A program made the position numbers and the translations under genes. The notes under the pieces were generated by a model that was not told the DNA's origin, searched no databases, and saw nothing but the letters and a program-made list of their open reading frames with translations. This document shows positions 200 to 17,901 of a DNA stretch of 28,360 nt, in pieces. Position 1 is the first letter of the stretch, and each line of letters opens with the position of its first letter. The DNA lies in the IMG/VR virus record IMGVR_UViG_3300044638_008785, positions 1-28,360 of that record. One strand, written 5' to 3'. This DNA is from a virus.

Positions 200-742
200 C
201 TATTTTTTTATACCATAAAAATATAAATCACAACTTATAGGATTGATTTTAAATTCGTGTAGTGAGAAATATTTTTCTAATAAAACAATTTCTTCTATAT
301 CTTCTTCTGTTAGATTTTTATAATAATCAGACCATTCTTCATTTGAAGATAATAAAGGAGCATCTTCTGGTCTGGTTCTACGTGTTCCATGTTCCGGACG
401 TCCAGTTGTTGCGCATGTAAATAAAAATAAACCGCCACTTTTTACAAGTCTAACACAATTGTTAATTGATTTATCATAATACATATCATGCTCAAAACAC
501 TCTGTACTTATAACTACATCGTATTCTCCATCTGGAGCATTATATTCATGAGCTTTTGAAACTATGTCAACATTTCTTCCTGGCCCTATGTCTATTCCAG
601 TATAGACACAATTTTCAAATAAATATCTATTATTTCCATTAATATCTAAAGAACCAACGTCTAAAACCTTTTTATCTTTAAATAAAAGTGGAAATTTATT
701 TTTTACTTCTCTACAAAAATCTATTTGCTCTTTGTGTGCCAT
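200..742 (-). CDS. Class I SAM-dependent methyltransferase
   Basis: A 180-residue protein with the Rossmann methyltransferase core. Motif I is VLDVGSLDINGNN near residue 26, an acidic residue follows in YTGIDIGPG, and the DVVISTECFEHD strand and LVKSGGLFLFT strand match a Methyltransf_11-type fold. The start is ATG 742, preceded by AAGGA at good spacing. It sits between two GT2 glycosyltransferases, so a role in methylating a sugar or sugar precursor is the natural inference; the substrate cannot be read from sequence. No DNA-methylase NPPY/DPPY motif is present. Confidence 0.8.
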   Translation of the reverse strand: MAHKEQIDFCREVKNKFPLLFKDKKVLDVGSLDINGNNRYLFENCVYTGIDIGPGRNVDIVSKAHEYNAPDGEYDVVISTECFEHDMYYDKSINNCVRLVKSGGLFLFTCATTGRPEHGTRRTRPEDAPLLSSNEEWSDYYKNLTEEDIEEIVLLEKYFSLHEFKINPISCDLYFYGIKK

Positions 743-751
743 CTTAAATCC

Positions 752-1804
752 TTATAAAATAATAGTAGCTATTTTATTATTCCAAATTTTTCCGAATAAT
801 ACATGATCGCTGGTCATTTGTTTATCATTCTTTTTTTCACCAACAGAATTAAACGTAAGTGATTCATCGTGCAAAAAACGAACACCTTTTCCGTAATACA
901 TAACTTTATTTTTATTTTCTATTATTCTCAAACACAAATCAACATCCTGAAAGTTTTTAGACAAAGAAGGATTATATCCGCCAAGTTTTATAAAAGTTTT
1001 TAAATCAATAAGATGAAAAGCGCCGGTAACAAATGTATCACCCTTATCGCAATCAACAAGGGCATTTTCTGGCTCTATAAACCTCTTATAATGTAATGGG
1101 CTGAACAATATTGGAGTATTCGGGAACTGTGCCCACATTCCTCCTCCAAACTGAACCGTTCCCCTCCATTTTCCATCTTTCATATTTGGAAAATGATTGG
1201 AAATGTTTGCTGTGTCGGAAGTATCTCCATTGAAAGATTTTAGTGGATACAATAATTTTGTTCCAGATATACTTGAGTTATCTTCTCTGTGCTTCTTTAT
1301 TACAGTTTCTAAATATTCTCTCTTATCAACCCACAAGTCATTATTCCAAAGTATAACTTCAGAGCATTCTAATTTACTTGCTATATATGCACCTATATTG
1401 CACAGCATAGAAAAGTTGAAACCTTTTTCATTATCAACTCTTAGATAAGATATTTGTTTTTTATCTTTTAGAACAGAAAGATAATCGTCTGTTGAACGAT
1501 CATCAACAACCATTATGTTACAGATTTCATCAACTTTATTTTCTAATAAGTTATTAATAGTATATTTTATTAATTCTATATTATTTCTTGAAGGGATAAT
1601 AATAAAAGGATTTTGTTTATTAAAACCCATTTCTTGAAATATAAATTTACATTTATATTCTACTTCAATTTGATTGAATTTTGCTTGTTGACCTTGTATA
1701 TCATTTAGCAATAATTCTTTTTGTTTTACAAAAAAAGGACCAGATAAAATATCCAAGTCTTCTTTAAATAAGTTGCACTCAAAGTATGACGATGTCTGAA
1801 TCAC
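752..1804 (-). CDS. GT2 family glycosyltransferase
   Basis: A 350-residue protein. After about 65 residues of unassigned N-terminus comes a GT-A domain: FIIIPSRNN, then MVVDDRSTDD, and WNNDLWV as the probable DxD-type metal/nucleotide site. Further on, GAFHLIDLKTFIKLGGYNP and FQDVDLCLRI match the acceptor-side motif of rhamnosyl-type GT2 enzymes. The start is a GTG at 1804 inside the 3' end of the upstream GT4 gene (26-base overlap), preceded by GGAA. The overlap implies translational coupling. Donor and acceptor are unknown. Confidence 0.85.
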   Translation of the reverse strand: MIQTSSYFECNLFKEDLDILSGPFFVKQKELLLNDIQGQQAKFNQIEVEYKCKFIFQEMGFNKQNPFIIIPSRNNIELIKYTINNLLENKVDEICNIMVVDDRSTDDYLSVLKDKKQISYLRVDNEKGFNFSMLCNIGAYIASKLECSEVILWNNDLWVDKREYLETVIKKHREDNSSISGTKLLYPLKSFNGDTSDTANISNHFPNMKDGKWRGTVQFGGGMWAQFPNTPILFSPLHYKRFIEPENALVDCDKGDTFVTGAFHLIDLKTFIKLGGYNPSLSKNFQDVDLCLRIIENKNKVMYYGKGVRFLHDESLTFNSVGEKKNDKQMTSDHVLFGKIWNNKIATIIL

Positions 1805-3014
1805 TTGATTTTCCGTTCAATACTTCAATAAATTTTTGCTTTTGTTTCTGTTCAGCAAATTCTTGAACAATATATTCTTGAAGCTTTTTGGCCTTAGCTA
1901 CAGGTGTTGGAAGATTCTTGAATACAGTTCTCATGGCATCTTTAACGCTTGATGTTTTTACATGACACCATTGAGCGTCTGCTTGTATTACACCTTCCCA
2001 TACAGCTTCTTTGTTTACATTTGCTAAATCAAAGTCAACTGCTGTGAAGTGATTTCTTAATCTTACTTTACCATCTTCTTTAACTGGTGCCATAAGGAAG
2101 TCAACATGACCACTCCACTTTGGAGCAATAACTGGAAGACCGGCACAAACCGCCTCAAACAGTGGAAGACCGAAACCTTCACCATGAGTTGTTGAAACAA
2201 TAGCCTTTATCTTTGGATGGTGATATAAGCCAGCCATTTCTTGTTCTGTCATATTGCCATGCAGAAGATAGACTTTGCATTTTGCGTCGCTGTAGTTCTT
2301 TTTAATCGCTTCTAAACGACGCTCACAGACCATTCTGTCCATGATACAGTTCTTGGAATGATTAACCTTCATTACAAGACCAACATTTTGTTCATTTTTA
2401 AATTCTTCGTAGAAAGAAGTGATTGTTGCTTCAGCGTTCTTTCTTGGACCCCATTGAACAACTGATAGGAAATTGAAATCAGTTTGTAAATCTAAATCAA
2501 GTTGTTTTGGCTGGGTTTTCTTTACTGGAAAATGAACAACTTCAACCGGAGTTGTATTTTTAAAATCTATTACTTGACCAGTTTGTGGATGTTGCAGTTT
2601 GTATTCTGTTAAATCAAATACTTGCTTTGAATGATTGGATACAACAATAATTTTATCCATCAATCTTGCTTTATCAATCCATTGTGGAGAGACTTTTGTT
2701 GTTTCTATTCCGGCTGTATAGCCAATATTGATGGGTGCAATCTTTTCAAATTCGTTTGGTATTGTAACCTGAATACTTATATCAAATGGACCTTTTTGTT
2801 GAATGTATCCGTGAGTTTTGGCCATTAATTGTGTTAGCCATTCTGTTTCTTCCGATTGCTCAACTGTCCAACCGGTTTTTCCCCAAGGGATATTGACAAG
2901 AAATATATCAAATTTATCTTCATGCTCTCTCAAACAACGAAGAGCAAATCTGGCTTGTTCTCCATAGCCAGAAAGTGATAGGGCTGGACCTTTTACTAAT
3001 ACTTTCTTTCTCAT
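1779..3014 (-). CDS. GT4 family glycosyltransferase
   Basis: A 411-residue GT-B fold enzyme. The N-terminal loop reads ALSLSGYGEQAR, the glycine-rich acceptor/donor loop. The C-terminal half has FLSVVQWGPRKN and the EX7E motif in GEGFGLPLFEAVCAGLPVI, which binds the nucleotide sugar in GT4 enzymes. I chose ATG 3014 rather than the longer frame because it overlaps the previous stop as ATGA and has GAAGGAG five bases upstream. The adjacent homologous GT4 gene suggests the two act in sequence on one glycan. The substrate is unknown. Confidence 0.9.
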   Translation of the reverse strand: MRKKVLVKGPALSLSGYGEQARFALRCLREHEDKFDIFLVNIPWGKTGWTVEQSEETEWLTQLMAKTHGYIQQKGPFDISIQVTIPNEFEKIAPINIGYTAGIETTKVSPQWIDKARLMDKIIVVSNHSKQVFDLTEYKLQHPQTGQVIDFKNTTPVEVVHFPVKKTQPKQLDLDLQTDFNFLSVVQWGPRKNAEATITSFYEEFKNEQNVGLVMKVNHSKNCIMDRMVCERRLEAIKKNYSDAKCKVYLLHGNMTEQEMAGLYHHPKIKAIVSTTHGEGFGLPLFEAVCAGLPVIAPKWSGHVDFLMAPVKEDGKVRLRNHFTAVDFDLANVNKEAVWEGVIQADAQWCHVKTSSVKDAMRTVFKNLPTPVAKAKKLQEYIVQEFAEQKQKQKFIEVLNGKSSDSDIVIL

Positions 3015-4233
3015 GCGATCTCCTTCAATACCCAACGGTTATAACCTTTTCTATTTTCCCACGAACCTCTTTCATTGTGAACCTTTGTAAAGAGTTCGTC
3101 CCATTTATTCATTAGGGTTGCCATATTATAATTGACTTGTAGATGATTTCTACCGGCTGCACCCAATGCTTCTCTTTCTGCTTGAGACATGTTGAATAAT
3201 TTTAATAGGGCATTTACAAAATCTTCTTTATTCACACGATCTTCATAAATAAAAGGAACTTCTTGTGAACCAACAATCATTTGCGAGGCGATTGGAAGTT
3301 CAACTCCAAAATGATTTCCAGCATCGTCTTTTACTTGTTCTTGCAAACCACCTGTTCGTGGAACAACAATAGGTGTTTCACAAGCGAGGCTTTCCATTGT
3401 TGAAAGACCAAAACCTTCGGCATCGGAAAGACTTACTGTTACATCTGCCATATTATAAAATGCAGCAAGGTCTTGTGGACCAACTCTACCTGGAGAAAAC
3501 ATAACTTCTCCATTTGTTAAACCAAGTTCGTTTATTATTGCTTCAAGGTCTGGTCCGTGAACATCTTTTGGATCTGTGTGCATTAGCAGTCTTGCTTTAT
3601 CTTTTCCTACAACATTTAGGAAATCGTTAAACCACCAAACAATACTACCAGGATTTTTTCTACGAGCATTTCTGCTATTCCAAAATACTGTGAACTTTTT
3701 ATTTGTATCTTTTGGAAAAACTCTTTTTCTAAATTGTTCAACTTGTTCTGATGGATATTTCTTGAACACATCCATATCAACAGCATGTGGAATATAATGA
3801 CACTCTACTTCTGGTGCTACATTCCTAACAATATCATCTGTTACTTTTGATATTGTCGCTATTACATCGTTTGATGCATAATATGGCTTATTAAATTTTG
3901 GATACGGCTTGTTGTCCCAAACATGATAATAAATCATTGGAACATTGCATCTTATTTCGTCTTCTATTTCCCAGAGCCAACCATAGAAACGAGGATCGGT
4001 CATGAACCAAAGAATATCTGGTTTTTGTTGCTTTAACAATTGACGAATTAAATCTTGAGTTCCATATCCATCAACAGGGATAATAACAAAGTCATCTCCC
4101 CACTCTTGGGTCTTTTGGATACGATAATCATTATGTTTTACTGCTCCACCAAGACAAACAAATGAGTATTTGCCAGTTTTCAACATGGCTTCTATCATAT
4201 ATCTCGTTTGTGTTCCGACTCCAGAAGGACTTA
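3011..4233 (-). CDS. GT4 family glycosyltransferase, exon 2 of an intron-split gene
   Basis: The frame from ATG 4198 gives 395 residues with the GT4 EX7E motif in AEGFGLSTMESLACETPIV and a GT-B C-terminal domain. In-frame codons upstream of that ATG encode SPSGVGTQTRY. This aligns with ALSLSGYGEQARF at the N-terminus of the neighbouring GT4, so the true protein starts further upstream. No start codon exists before an in-frame TGA, because the upstream DNA is the 3' end of a group I intron. The upper boundary given here is the likely 3' splice site (G4234 or G4230). The missing start lies in exon 1 near 5450-5498. Confidence 0.85.
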
Positions 4234-5447
4234 CTTTAAATGGACTATATCATCATCATTAAGGTTATTAATGAGTCGGGCGCTGTCGGATCATTGCCAT
4301 GATACTTTTGTATTTTAGGCTAACCGTAGTCTCTGAACCTTCATCACCGTTTCCGGACAGATGCTTGGCTGCTGATTGTCTCAATTTATATTTCTCAGAC
4401 CTTCACACTTATCGTTTCCAATTATGTTGTGGTATATAAATTTTTGAGAGTTTCCAGCAATTCACCCGATTTTACATCCGCCAATGTCCTACGCTAACGG
4501 ATGATCGCTTATTGTCAATATTTTAATCTTTTTATTCATTCACTAACTCCGTGAGAATATCGTTTTTATTTAACTTATAATCATATTCCCATATCACTTT
4601 AACTTTATATCCCATATCAGAAAGATCTTTAAGTCTTTTTTGATCTTCTTCCCATATCTGTTTAGAAGTTTTTTGTTTCTTTTTTATAACGAAATCTTCT
4701 TTATAAAATCTGGGATCTGCGTGCCAGTATGTTCCATTAAATTCAATTATTTGATTAAGTTCTTTGATGTATATATCAACTTTATATAACTTGTCTTGCT
4801 TATTATAAATTGGAAAATCATAAAATATTGTATATTTTGTATTATTTTTTAAATACTCTATTAGTTCTTTTTGAGGTTTTGAAAGTGATATATGTTTAGC
4901 AAGAGCAAAAGCATTTTTAACACCATATTTTTCTAATAAAGTATTTTTAACTTTCTCTCTTACTCCTAATTTTTCTTTTTTTCCAAACGACGGATTATTT
5001 TTCGTCATATATTCAGACATATAACTTTTACGACATTCTTCAGAACCACAAAGTTTTTTATTTTCCATGTCGCGTGGTTCACAATAAAATTGTGTTTTGC
5101 ATTTTATGCATTCTTTGTTGATACCAATTTTTTCATTGACTCTTAAGCGCCACTTATCATATGTGCCATCTTCAATATATTTTTTTGAAGCACAAGAACG
5201 AGAGCAAAAGCCATTTCTTTTTCTGTATCTTGTAACTTCTTTTTCACAATGGATGCATTTAAAGGTTTCTAAATGTTTTAGAATATTCTTTTTTCTTCTT
5301 AAATTATTATGTTTTTTTCTGCACTCATCAGAGCAAGTTCTTTTCATCCCTTGCCCTTCTAATAGTGTAAATTCAGTGTTGCAAATTAAACAATTTCTTG
5401 CAGTCATTTCAGTTTGTTCTCCCACACTTATAAATAGTAGCGTAGGA
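4231..5447 (-). ncRNA. Group I self-splicing intron with an internal homing endonuclease (ends approximate)
   Basis: On the minus strand the conserved core can be read in order. P is AATTGCTGGAAAC (4450-4466), Q is AATCAGCAGCC (about 4367-4377), R is GTTCAGAGACTA (4327-4338) and S is GATATAGTCC (4242-4251). GACTA of R pairs with TAGTC of S as P7. P3 pairs about 4463-4470 with TCGGGCG at 4276-4282 (read on plus). P8 is a CATTAA/TTAATG hairpin at 4257-4273, and two small hairpins between R and P3' fit P7.1/P7.2, suggesting subgroup IA. A 6-bp hairpin (4475-4503) sits before P3. Ten bases at 5438-5447 are perfectly complementary to 4487-4496, a likely P1/P2-type closing pairing. The 3' splice site is G4234 or G4230; the 5' site is not settled. 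Confidence 0.9.
4532..5407 (-). CDS. Intron-encoded homing endonuclease, zinc-finger plus Vsr-like (EDxHD-type) nuclease
   Basis: A 291-residue protein inside the group I intron. The N-terminal half holds three Cys4 zinc modules (CLIC...CSDEC, CIHC...CSRSC, CIKC...CGSEEC). A NUMOD3-like NNPSFGKK and the phage-type LEKYGVKNAFA segment follow. The C-terminal nuclease has a KPQKELIEYL glutamate, VDIYI, IIEFNGTYWHAD and a late IWEEDQKRL. This matches the Vsr-like EDxHD class known from I-Bth0305I rather than LAGLIDADG or GIY-YIG. ATG 5407 has GGAGA upstream; a GTG at 5425 would add six residues. It should cut the intronless GT4 allele near the splice junction. Confidence 0.85.
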   Translation of the reverse strand: MTARNCLICNTEFTLLEGQGMKRTCSDECRKKHNNLRRKKNILKHLETFKCIHCEKEVTRYRKRNGFCSRSCASKKYIEDGTYDKWRLRVNEKIGINKECIKCKTQFYCEPRDMENKKLCGSEECRKSYMSEYMTKNNPSFGKKEKLGVREKVKNTLLEKYGVKNAFALAKHISLSKPQKELIEYLKNNTKYTIFYDFPIYNKQDKLYKVDIYIKELNQIIEFNGTYWHADPRFYKEDFVIKKKQKTSKQIWEEDQKRLKDLSDMGYKVKVIWEYDYKLNKNDILTELVNE

Positions 5448-5498
5448 ACTCAAACTCAAGGACAGTGTTGCGTTCTGTGAAATGAACACGAAGAACAC
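5445..5498 (-). CDS. Candidate exon 1 of the intron-split GT4 glycosyltransferase
   Basis: In the +1 frame relative to the end of the Fe-S nuclease gene, GTG 5498 (or GTG 5489) opens FFVFISQNATLSLS. A hydrophobic first strand followed by TLS is what the N-terminus of a GT4 needs, and it aligns with the neighbour's VLVKGPALSLSG. Splicing after T5447 or T5459 to the base after G4234 restores frame into SPSGVGTQTRY. Weak points: no ATG, no clear Shine-Dalgarno, and the stretch is also forced by the overlapping nuclease frame. The upstream in-frame stop is TAA just before ACT ATC. Treat as inference. Confidence 0.35.
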
Positions 5499-6265
5499 GA
5501 TAGTTTATTTTTTATAAACCTTTCGTGGTCAACATTATGCACACATTCTTGAAGAAGTTTAAGAGCATTACTTACTTTTTTTTCACCACTACTCACACGG
5601 AATAGTTCTACCTTATCCTTCTTTGCTGTTCGTTTTAGAAGTCCAAAGTGAGTTTCAATTTTATCTACTGGAATACCATGTTTCTTTCCAAAGAAATGTT
5701 TATAATAGGTCAACTGATAAGTGACCATTGCATCATTCTTTTTTTGTGGTTCCCACCCCCAACTACAAGTTTTCCAGTCAATGATATTATACTTACCGTC
5801 TTTTGTTTTCAAGACAAGGTCAATATATCCTTTATATTTGTAGTCATCAATTTTATATTCTTCAATTTCCTCAAGCAGATCTTCTTCGGCTGATACATAT
5901 TCAAATTCACCAAAATATTCTTTGGCTGCGGGATAAATTAAGTCAGCAAGTTCGCGACCTTGTTGGTCAAAATCTGTTAAATCTTTGGCAGATATACCTT
6001 CACGGATTTCTTTTGATAAGGAAGAAATTTCTTTTTGGAAGTTAAATGAAAAGTCCTTTGGATAATCAAACGATCCTTCCTTCTCCTGCTTAAAGATTTT
6101 TTCACTGGTTGAGTGGAGGGCTTTTCCAAAAGCAGTGTGAATGGATTCACGGCCTGCGGAAATTCCGTCAATACGAGTAAGTTTATAATAAAAAGGGCAA
6201 AATTTCCAATCTTTGATTGAAGAATAACTAACATAATCTGGTTTTTTAGTTTCTGGTTCAAGCAA
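5456..6265 (-). CDS. PD-(D/E)XK nuclease with Cas4/RecB-like Fe-S cysteines
   Basis: A 269-residue protein. SYSSIKDWKFCPFYY is the usual start of RecB/Cas4-like nucleases, KALHST gives the conserved His, GYIDLV the first acidic ligand and IIDWKT the D-x-K catalytic motif. Cysteines C23, C257, C260 and C268 are placed to bind an Fe-S cluster. The start is TTG 6265, supported by AGAGGTGA five bases upstream and by the absence of a good ATG. A role in phage recombination or DNA end processing is inferred from the family. The last codons appear to overlap exon 1 of the downstream glycosyltransferase. Confidence 0.85.
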   Translation of the reverse strand: MLEPETKKPDYVSYSSIKDWKFCPFYYKLTRIDGISAGRESIHTAFGKALHSTSEKIFKQEKEGSFDYPKDFSFNFQKEISSLSKEIREGISAKDLTDFDQQGRELADLIYPAAKEYFGEFEYVSAEEDLLEEIEEYKIDDYKYKGYIDLVLKTKDGKYNIIDWKTCSWGWEPQKKNDAMVTYQLTYYKHFFGKKHGIPVDKIETHFGLLKRTAKKDKVELFRVSSGEKKVSNALKLLQECVHNVDHERFIKNKLSCSSCSFHRTQHCP

Positions 6266-7209: not shown

Positions 7210-7881
7210 TTATTTATTATCTCTAACAATTCCATGACAGGAACAATTTGGTATTCCTAGATTATCAAAATTAAGCGAAATAATTTGCTCTTTTGATACA
7301 AAATTTTTCAATTCTTCACTCATTTTATATTCACCATTTTCAAATTTTATTAAACCTTTTTTATATAAATTAAAAACTATTTTTTCTGCTGTATCGTGAG
7401 CGTGATTATGAATTTGGTTTGATTCTTTTCTATCTTGCCCAGAACATAAAAATAAATTTTGTGGTGAATTATTTTCTTTATCTCCATCAATATGGTGTAC
7501 TATTTCATGATCGTTTAAAAATCTTCCAATTTGTTTTTCAACAACAAGTACGTGCTCAAAAATATAACTTCCACCTTTTCTATTTTTTTTCCTAGGATGG
7601 TATTCATCAACTATTAATTGTTTATATCCTCTACCTTGATTATAGCGAATTCCACCATTATGTATTTTTCTTTGAGCAATACTCATGTTTTTTTTCGCTA
7701 ATTCACTTCTTTTTGTACCTGTATTAGTTTCTGTTATAGAACAAGAACGACATATATGAAGAGGATTGTTTTTATCCATGGCAGTTAAATATTTTACTGT
7801 TCTTTCTTTATTACACTTTTCGCAAATAACAACAGCTTTTTTGTCTAGTACTCTTCCTTCTCCTATAATATTTTTTATCAT
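7210..7881 (-). CDS. Free-standing HNH homing endonuclease
   Basis: A 223-residue protein. A Cys4 zinc finger (C20-x2-C23, C44-x2-C47) and a NUMOD3-like TGTKRSELAKKN segment come before an HNH_3-type core, HEIVHHIDGDKENNSPQNL, with the catalytic His at 129-130 and Asn at 137/142. I start at ATG 7881 (AGGAG eight bases upstream) rather than the longer frame, which begins in the phoH 3' flank. No group I core motifs flank it, so it looks like a selfish intergenic gene between phoH and the 83-residue gene. Confidence 0.85.
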   Translation of the reverse strand: MIKNIIGEGRVLDKKAVVICEKCNKERTVKYLTAMDKNNPLHICRSCSITETNTGTKRSELAKKNMSIAQRKIHNGGIRYNQGRGYKQLIVDEYHPRKKNRKGGSYIFEHVLVVEKQIGRFLNDHEIVHHIDGDKENNSPQNLFLCSGQDRKESNQIHNHAHDTAEKIVFNLYKKGLIKFENGEYKMSEELKNFVSKEQIISLNFDNLGIPNCSCHGIVRDNK

Positions 7882-7944
7882 TTTATTTCTCCTAGTTAAA
7901 ACAACATTATAGTAACTAGTGTTGAAATAAATTTTTATCAACAT

Positions 7945-10485: not shown

Positions 10486-10564
10486 TGGTGGGCACGGTGG
10501 GAGTCGAACCCACACTGTATTGATTTTAAGTCAACTGTCTCCTGACCTGTTGGACTACGTGCCC
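10486..10564 (-). tRNA. tRNA-Leu (TAA), with unusually short variable region
   Basis: Acceptor GGGCACG/CGTGCCC, a 3-bp D stem GTC/GAC with a long D loop, anticodon arm GTTGA-CTTAAAA-TCAAT giving TAA, T-arm GTGGG-TTCGACT-CCCAC, discriminator A and encoded CCA. The D arm is leucine-like, but the variable region is only about 5 bases where class II tRNAs normally have a stem. The 5' ten bases are also the last codons and stop of the upstream HNH gene. Confidence 0.78.
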
Positions 10565-11181
10565 TTATTTATTAGTTTTTTTAATCTTTTAATATTTCCC
10601 GAACCCGCTAAACCTACTTCTTTTAGTGCTCTATCAACATTATTATGCTTCTTGTATGACTCTAGCAGATCTTCATCAGATATTTTAGTCTTACCTGTAT
10701 TTTGTTTTCCACAAAATGTTTCAGTCTGTGAATGACAATTTGGGCATAACCATCTTAAATTTTCTAATCTATGATCGTTGCGAATTCCATTAATGTGATC
10801 TAATTGTAAAGTTAATTTTTTTTCATTCCAAATGGGAAGCATGTTACAAATATTACACTTATATTCTAATAAATTATTTTTTAGAACTAAGCTTCTAATA
10901 TGTGTACGAGGGGCAAGACTATTTTCTACAAACATTTCTTCTAATTTTATTTTTTTACATACTCTTTGATCAGTTAAAATTGTTTTTCCTTTTGACCATA
11001 GCTGTCCTGTCCAATGAGAAAAATCAATATTTAAATCATTCAAATATTTTCTTAGTCTCGTTGTACTTCCAGATTTACCTTCAAATCCCAGTTTTCTAGC
11101 AGCTTCAGCAGCACTATAGCTGCTATTAATAATATCTAAAATTTCTTCATGAGAAAAGTTATTTAATTTTTTCTTATTCAT
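10555..11181 (-). CDS. HNH homing endonuclease ending inside tRNA-Leu
   Basis: A 208-residue protein. The core is CNIC...LQLDHINGIRNDHRLENLRWLCPNCHSQT, quoted in part, a classic zinc-bound HNH endonuclease. An N-terminal helix-turn-helix-like segment (EEILDIINSSYSAAEAARKLG) is echoed at the C-terminus (LLESYKKHNNVDRALKEVGL), probably two DNA-binding copies around the nuclease. ATG 11181 has AGGAG 11 bases upstream. The stop codon TAG lies at bases 8-10 of tRNA-Leu, so the gene is fused flush to the tRNA and probably uses it, or its DNA, as an insertion site. Confidence 0.85.
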   Translation of the reverse strand: MNKKKLNNFSHEEILDIINSSYSAAEAARKLGFEGKSGSTTRLRKYLNDLNIDFSHWTGQLWSKGKTILTDQRVCKKIKLEEMFVENSLAPRTHIRSLVLKNNLLEYKCNICNMLPIWNEKKLTLQLDHINGIRNDHRLENLRWLCPNCHSQTETFCGKQNTGKTKISDEDLLESYKKHNNVDRALKEVGLAGSGNIKRLKKLINKGT

Positions 11182-11214
11182 ATTGGTAGACACTCCTATA
11201 ATAAATAGTATGTA

Positions 11215-17791: not shown

Positions 17792-17818
17792 ATTATTTCT
17801 CTCTTAAATTAAGTCCGG

Positions 17819-17901
17819 TGTTTAACTCGGATTCGAACCGAGATGCCATTTCGGCGCTGTAAACTACTTTACAGTGAGTCTACCAATTCCTCCAGTAAAC
17901 A
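17819..17901 (-). tRNA. Aberrant tRNA-Leu-like gene (anticodon uncertain, no CCA)
   Basis: Acceptor TGTTTAC/TTAAACA (6 of 7 pairs), U8, D stem GAG/CTC with a leucine-type AATTGG loop, long variable arm (GCC/GGC) and T-arm CTCGG-TTCGAAT-CCGAG. The anticodon stem CTGTA/TACAG closes an 8-base loop AAGTAGTT, so no normal T33 plus anticodon can be placed; TAG (Leu) is closest by alignment. Discriminator is C and the next bases are CGG, unlike all other tRNAs here. A tyrosine reading (CTGTAAA loop) needs two stem mismatches. Confidence 0.6.

What the first reader, a model, noticed from the sequence alone, without database searches (positions are those of the whole stretch)
4231..5447. Group I intron inside a glycosyltransferase gene, at the glycine-rich loop
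All four core elements (P, Q, R, S), P3, P8 and P7 pairings are readable on the minus strand. Sequence just outside the 3' end encodes SPSGVGTQTRY, in frame with the GT4 protein and alignable with the neighbour's ALSLSGYGEQARF. Phage group I introns are usually known from DNA-metabolism or structural genes; a cell-surface glycosyltransferase host gene would be unusual. The insertion at a conserved functional loop is typical of homing sites.
Basis: partly seen in the sequence, partly recalled or inferred. Interest (0 to 1): 0.85.

Follow-up and report, generated by a model that had tools for sequence, protein, structure and literature searches.

The report
Phage intron paired with neighbouring endonuclease
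A glycosyltransferase gene in an environmental phage is interrupted by a small self-splicing intron that appears to spread between phages with the DNA-cutting enzyme encoded just upstream of the gene, not inside the intron, a rare kind of partnership so far known from a few phages.

Summary
The group I intron is real: Rfam RF00028, 71.5 bits, with strong covariation across 10 relatives. It does sit in a GT4 glycosyltransferase gene. The intron is only 263 nt (4234-4496, minus strand) and has no ORF. The ORF that fills the rest of 4231-5447 is a separate homing-endonuclease gene (4532-5407), lying outside the intron and upstream of a 43-nt exon 1. In intronless relatives the two exon sequences are contiguous (79 of 79 readable loci), which fixes the splice sites at CCGT|TA.

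Twelve other viral contigs carry the same intron at the same site. Of the 13 including the window, 10 have the same Vsr-like (EDxHD-type) endonuclease immediately upstream, 2 have its remnants, and 1 is cut off by the contig end. No intronless locus has it. Endonuclease and intron have moved together: 81% aa (endonuclease) and 85% nt (intron) identity between phages whose flanking genes are 51-66% aa identical.

Four intronless loci carry, in the same slot, an endonuclease with the same zinc-finger targeting module but an HNH nuclease. The best reading is collaborative homing, as in F-CphI/psbA: a new member, with an unusual nuclease swap. Cleavage of the intronless site is inferred, not shown.

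The parts
4234..4496 (-). ORF-less group I intron, 263 nt; 5' splice after CCGT (4497), 3' splice after omega-G (4234)
   Evidence: RF00028 71.5 bits; junctions aligned in 10 loci; covariation; P10 fits own exon; exons contiguous in intronless relatives
4497..4539 (-). GT4 gene exon 1 (43 nt, ATG at 4539), encodes MNKKIKILTISDHP and the first base of the next codon
   Evidence: matches the N-terminus of intronless homologues L001-L010 etc.; read-through into the intron meets TAG at 4491-4489
3011..4233 (-). GT4 gene exon 2; the spliced CDS of 1266 nt codes for 421 aa
   Evidence: Pfam PF00534 3.2e-14, phrog_2170 glycosyltransferase, 83-93% identical full-length intronless relatives
4532..5407 (-). 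Free-standing homing endonuclease: three Cys-pair zinc-finger-like units plus a C-terminal Vsr-like (EDxHD-type) nuclease domain; stop codon overlaps the GT4 start by 8 nt
   Evidence: AlphaFold model, Foldseek to I-Bth0305I 3r3p (prob 1.00, TMt 0.70) and Vsr 1vsr (0.99); phrog_3339 homing endonuclease; TIGR00632 vsr weak, 0.0034
5411..5456 (-). Stem-loop that would cover the endonuclease ribosome-binding site; conserved upstream of both Vsr-type and HNH-type versions
   Evidence: MFE -19.9, z -5.9, 0 of 200 shuffles; the same fold in L001, L003, L048
5456..6265 (-). PD-(D/E)XK exonuclease gene, the left neighbour in intron-plus and intronless phages; its stop is the left edge of the endonuclease slot
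   Evidence: Pfam PF12705 2e-15, phrog_1218 exonuclease; synteny

Best explanation
The locus is a two-gene mobile unit. A short group I intron interrupts the GT4 gene at codon 15 and splices itself from the mRNA, restoring DHP-L-SPSGVGTQ. The adjacent, separately encoded zinc-finger/Vsr-like endonuclease most likely cuts intronless GT4 alleles at or very near the intron site. Repair from the resident copy then installs endonuclease, exon 1 and intron together, and the intron protects the new copy by splitting the target (collaborative homing). Shown by sequence: intron, exons, splice sites, intronless alleles, co-occurrence and joint transfer. Inferred: splicing in vivo, DNA cleavage, the exact cut site, protection by the intron.
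For: RF00028 hit over threshold in the window and in 6 relatives at the GT4 site. Covariation in P3, P5, P6 and P8-type helices, 0 of 500 shuffles. Each lineage's internal guide fits its own 3' exon (sum 39 vs mean 25.75, 24 of 40320 permutations as good). 79 intronless homologues read straight through. The intron core is found in 12 viral stretches, all at this site. The full Vsr-type endonuclease lies directly upstream in 10 of 13 intron contigs, with remnants in 2, and in none of the intronless loci. Window vs L195: exonuclease 51% aa, GT4 66%, next GT 60%, but endonuclease 81% aa and intron 85% nt; in other pairs the endonuclease evolves as fast as the exonuclease (window-L123 49 vs 46%), so slow evolution does not explain this. 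Intron state needs at least 6 changes on the GT4 tree. Vsr-like homing nuclease fold.
Against: No cleavage or splicing data. HNH-type versions with the same N-terminal module sit in intronless genomes, so the module's target may be the gene gap or elsewhere in the GT4 start rather than the intron site itself. Extra divergence next to the site is seen (L195-L013: 69% near vs 85% far; L001-window 73 vs 88%), but some control pairs show as much, so conversion tracts are only suggestive.
Confidence: 0.72

Rival explanations
1. Hitchhiking: the endonuclease homes by itself into the gap between exonuclease and GT4 (intronless homing). Its target is that junction or the GT4 start, and the intron, about 40 bp away, is carried along by gene conversion without protecting the target.
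For: HNH-type versions sharing ~80% of the N-terminal module occupy the same gap without the intron. Endonuclease and intron are separated by only 35 nt.
Against: Every intact Vsr-type copy with readable flank has the intron, and none is intronless; hitchhiking alone would sometimes leave the intron behind.
Confidence: 0.2
2. A conventional single mobile intron of ~1.2 kb with the endonuclease ORF inside, the 5' splice site being near 5447.
For: Endonuclease ORFs normally lie inside phage group I introns. In L271 the ORF does run through exon 1 to position 1640, 73 nt into the intron.
Against: Exon 1, P1 and the guide sequence lie between the ORF and the catalytic core. In intronless phages exon 1 continues exactly into exon 2. 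The covariance model starts at 4506.
Confidence: 0.02
3. The intron is a degenerate, non-splicing remnant and the GT4 protein starts downstream (ATG 4198) or is lost.
For: An ORF from ATG 4198 gives 395 aa. No RNA data.
Against: All core helices intact and covarying, P1 and P10 kept in every lineage, exon 1 coding sequence conserved.
Confidence: 0.04

Closest known systems
Collaborative homing: F-CphI (ORF177) with the psbA group I intron of cyanophage S-PM2
   Same: ORF-less group I intron in a phage auxiliary gene with a free-standing endonuclease gene next to the interrupted gene (PMC6083498)
   Different: F-CphI has an Endo VII-type nuclease and was shown to cut intronless psbA; here the nuclease is Vsr-like with zinc fingers, lies upstream of exon 1 with its stop overlapping the host start codon, the host gene is a GT4, and cleavage is untested
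T3/T7-like and ICP1 intron plus adjacent endonuclease gene (Bonocora and Shub 2009, as cited in PMC10448857)
   Same: intron and endonuclease gene adjacent, endonuclease outside the intron
   Different: other host genes; the ICP1 terminase case has a T5orf172 endonuclease (PMC10448857); different nuclease families
I-Bth0305I, EDxHD / Vsr-like homing endonuclease
   Same: C-terminal fold (3r3p)
   Different: this one has an N-terminal zinc-finger array and is not encoded inside an intron
Phage group I introns of Staphylococcus PT1-4 (lysin), Lactococcus AM1 (RNR) and phiKZ
   Same: 74-78% DNA identity over part of the intron core
   Different: other host genes; an HNH gene lies in the intervening region in PT1-4 and AM1, whereas here the intron has no ORF

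Membership tests
Group I intron (RF00028) | Covariance model of the catalytic core above the gathering score | tested here: met
   71.5 bits vs 50; relatives 57.6-77.2 bits
Group I intron (RF00028) | P1 with U.G at the 5' splice site, omega-G at the 3' end, P3-P7 pseudoknot, P10 | tested here: met
   AUCCGU:GCGGAU, final G4234, P7 GACUA/UAGUC invariant, P10 fits own exon
Group I intron (RF00028) | Self-splicing RNA | not testable with these tools
   no RNA data; intronless alleles show the expected product
Collaborative homing system | Intron without an ORF and a free-standing endonuclease gene adjacent to the interrupted gene | tested here: met
Collaborative homing system | Intron and endonuclease transferred together | tested here: met
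   81% aa / 85% nt in an otherwise 51-66% aa background; polyphyletic on the GT4 tree
Collaborative homing system | Endonuclease cuts intronless but not intron-containing allele at the insertion site | not testable with these tools
   needs a biochemical assay
EDxHD / Vsr-like homing endonuclease | Vsr-like nuclease fold | tested here: met
   Foldseek 3r3p prob 1.00 (E 8.3e-3), 1vsr 0.99; weak TIGR00632
EDxHD / Vsr-like homing endonuclease | Exact EDxHD catalytic residues superposed on I-Bth0305I | not tested
   D211, E222, H229 and others are invariant in 7 relatives, but residue-level superposition was not made and the I-Bth0305I paper is not held
GT4 glycosyltransferase (host gene) | Glycos_transf_1 domain above cut-off | tested here: met
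   PF00534 53.3 bits vs 26.4

The most novel reading that the evidence does not exclude
A single zinc-finger targeting module has been paired in nature with two unrelated nucleases in the same gene slot. The HNH version (L001, L003, L048, L299) spreads as a lone endonuclease without the intron, while the Vsr-like version is obligately partnered with the intron. Which nuclease is fused to the module would then decide whether the element needs an intron for self-protection. L271, where the endonuclease ORF runs into the intron, would be a step towards a composite mobile intron.
Probability: 0.35. Interest if true: 0.72.

Novelty: new member of a known kind. Interest (0 to 1): 0.56.

Why it matters
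Collaborative homing is known from very few phages and is the proposed route by which endonucleases became enclosed in introns. This locus offers a family of at least 13 related copies. It includes intact pairs, decayed endonucleases with the intron retained, empty sites, one ORF that runs into the intron, and a nuclease-swapped competitor without the intron. The order of events and the role of the intron as protection therefore become testable. It also adds a glycosyltransferase to the host genes of phage introns.

Tried and rejected
The whole-window Rfam gathering scan missed the intron; the 1.5-kb scan found it. MFE of the intron alone is only z -1.5, so single-sequence folding was not used as evidence. 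The conversion-tract test around the insertion site was inconclusive against control pairs; a first version timed out. phmmer against PDB gave no meaningful relative of the endonuclease; the structural search did. Pfam found nothing for the endonuclease. Phage isolates hold no close GT4 or full-length endonuclease relative. Literature searches found no report of a group I intron in a phage glycosyltransferase gene in the held library; subscription papers are not held, so this is weak. Loci L200 onward share only the C-terminal nuclease domain and were not pursued. The idea that the ORF lies inside the intron was rejected.

Full report
Observation. A covariance scan of 4100-5600 gives one strong hit: RF00028 at 4221-4506, 71.5 bits against a gathering score of 50, E 8.4e-18 (the same score for the whole record). 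The fast whole-window scan had missed it. The intron is therefore real, but it covers only the last quarter of the stated interval.

Exact anatomy (minus strand). Intronless relatives set the borders. GT4 exon 1 is 4539-4497 (ATG AAT AAA ... GAT CAT CCG T, MNKKIKILTISDHP). The intron is 4496-4234 (263 nt, ending in G). Exon 2 starts at 4233 (TA AGT CCT TCT GGA GTC = L S P S G V). The spliced CDS is 1266 nt, 421 aa. Reading through from exon 1 meets TAG at 4491-4489, so the full protein needs splicing. The endonuclease ORF runs 5407-4532, and its stop overlaps the GT4 start codon by 8 nt. The left neighbour is a PD-(D/E)XK exonuclease (5456-6265).

Intronless alleles. Of 80 related GT4 loci from IMG/VR, 79 have a readable start. 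All 79 read continuously from a start codon through xISDHPLS into PSGVGTQ with no insertion, and six of the closest have no RF00028 hit. This is the spliced product predicted for the window. The GT4 relatives were sampled by peptide patterns, not exhaustively.

The intron as RNA. Ten introns at the same site were aligned. With a structure that includes P7 as a pseudoknot, 96.9% of cells are paired (28-41% with partners slid by 1 to 3 columns). 25 pairs have double-sided changes (16.8 expected from shuffles) and the covariation score is 0.357 versus 0.146; none of 500 shuffles reaches these values. The structure was derived from this alignment, which inflates the paired-cell comparison, but not the count of compensatory changes against shuffles to the same degree. 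P1 (AUCCGU with GCGGAU) is invariant. P10 varies with the host exon: where exon 2 starts UAAUGC, UAAGCC, UAUCACCG or UGAGC, the intron's guide changes accordingly. The fit of own guide to own exon is reached by 24 of 40320 permutations (duplex energies). The window's own P10 needs one bulged A.

Distribution of intron and endonuclease. A 22-nt invariant intron core occurs in 12 IMG/VR stretches, all in this GT4 site. Counting the window, 13 contigs carry the intron. Ten have a full-length or contig-spanning Vsr-type endonuclease directly upstream: window, L193, L194, L195, L196, L197, L198, L115/L296, L123, L271. Two have decayed ones: L270 keeps about 50 C-terminal residues, and L145 has a GDP-mannose dehydratase-like gene between endonuclease remnants. 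One starts inside the intron (L273). Of the 80 intronless loci read (79 plus L299), none has the Vsr-type gene.

Joint transfer. Between the window and L195 the exonuclease is 51% identical in protein, the GT4 66% and the next glycosyltransferase 60%, but the endonuclease is 81% and the intron 85% in DNA. Endonucleases are not generally slow: window-L123 gives 49% for the endonuclease and 46% for the exonuclease. On the GT4 tree the intron state needs at least six changes. The window lies in a fully supported clade of nine whose eight other members are intronless, and L195/L196 have the intronless sister L013. Local excess divergence beside the site is present for L013-L195 and L001-window, but some control pairs reach the same level, so I do not rely on it.

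The endonuclease. An AlphaFold model from seven relatives (mean pLDDT 76) shows three Cys-pair units and a C-terminal nuclease domain. Foldseek places that domain with the homing endonuclease I-Bth0305I (3r3p, probability 1.00, TM 0.70 on the target) and E. coli Vsr. E-values are modest (8e-3, 1.6e-2), but a weak independent Vsr profile hit agrees. It belongs to the Vsr-like/EDxHD type by fold; catalytic residues were not superposed.

The nuclease swap. In L001, L003, L048 and L299, all intronless, the same gap between exonuclease and GT4 holds a different endonuclease. In L001 and L003 its first ~107 residues are about 80% identical to the window's (57-60% over ~80 residues in L048 and L299). 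The rest of the protein is unrelated; its DHI...N...NLRPL...N pattern is read here as HNH, from the sequence (no family hit in NCBIfam). The 5' stem-loop is also shared with L001, L003 and L048. L001 is the window's nearest GT4 relative (93%) and L048 is the sister of the intron-bearing L145, so the two kinds replace each other within close relatives.

Mechanism. The best-supported reading is collaborative homing, described for F-CphI and the psbA intron of S-PM2 (PMC6083498; reviewed in PMC3984707; also PMC10448857 for T3-like phages and ICP1). The upstream endonuclease opens intronless GT4 alleles at or near the intron site, repair copies the whole unit, and the intron hides the target. The main rival is hitchhiking of the intron with an endonuclease whose target is the neighbouring gap; the intron-free HNH versions keep that alive. 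Cleavage and splicing are inferred.

Novelty. Both parts are of known kinds and the arrangement has precedents, so this is a new member of a known kind. Less usual are the Vsr-like nuclease in such a pair, the glycosyltransferase host gene, and the exchange of nuclease domains on one targeting module that tracks the presence of the intron.

Noticed in passing
L193:506-795 (also L272:8417 onward): A phage contig related to the window carries tRNA-Leu(UAA) interrupted in the anticodon loop by a 203-nt group I intron (RF00028 51.8 bits; ARAGORN with introns gives tRNA-Leu taa). The site is after anticodon base 34, which from my own knowledge is the position of the cyanobacterial/plastid tRNA-Leu intron.
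   Followed up: partly
window 5411-5456 minus: Strong stem-loop over the endonuclease ribosome-binding site with a conserved AT-rich loop, shared by HNH-type and Vsr-type versions; it resembles translational control reported for T4 homing endonucleases (own knowledge).
   Followed up: partly
L145:1226-2472: The endonuclease slot holds a GDP-mannose dehydratase-like gene between endonuclease remnants while the intron is retained: possible cargo or decay.
   Followed up: partly
L271:618-1640: The endonuclease ORF overlaps all of GT4 exon 1 and ends 73 nt inside the intron, intermediate between free-standing and intron-encoded.
   Followed up: partly
window 7210-7944 and 10555-11193 minus: Two further HNH endonuclease genes in the window, not linked to an intron hit.
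   Followed up: no
window 17817-17901 minus: ARAGORN calls an odd tRNA with a four-base anticodon (gtag), not supported by the Rfam tRNA model at its cut-off.
   Followed up: no
window 200-3035 minus: The GT4 gene belongs to a sugar-modification cluster (second GT4, GT2, methyltransferase); substrate unknown.
   Followed up: no
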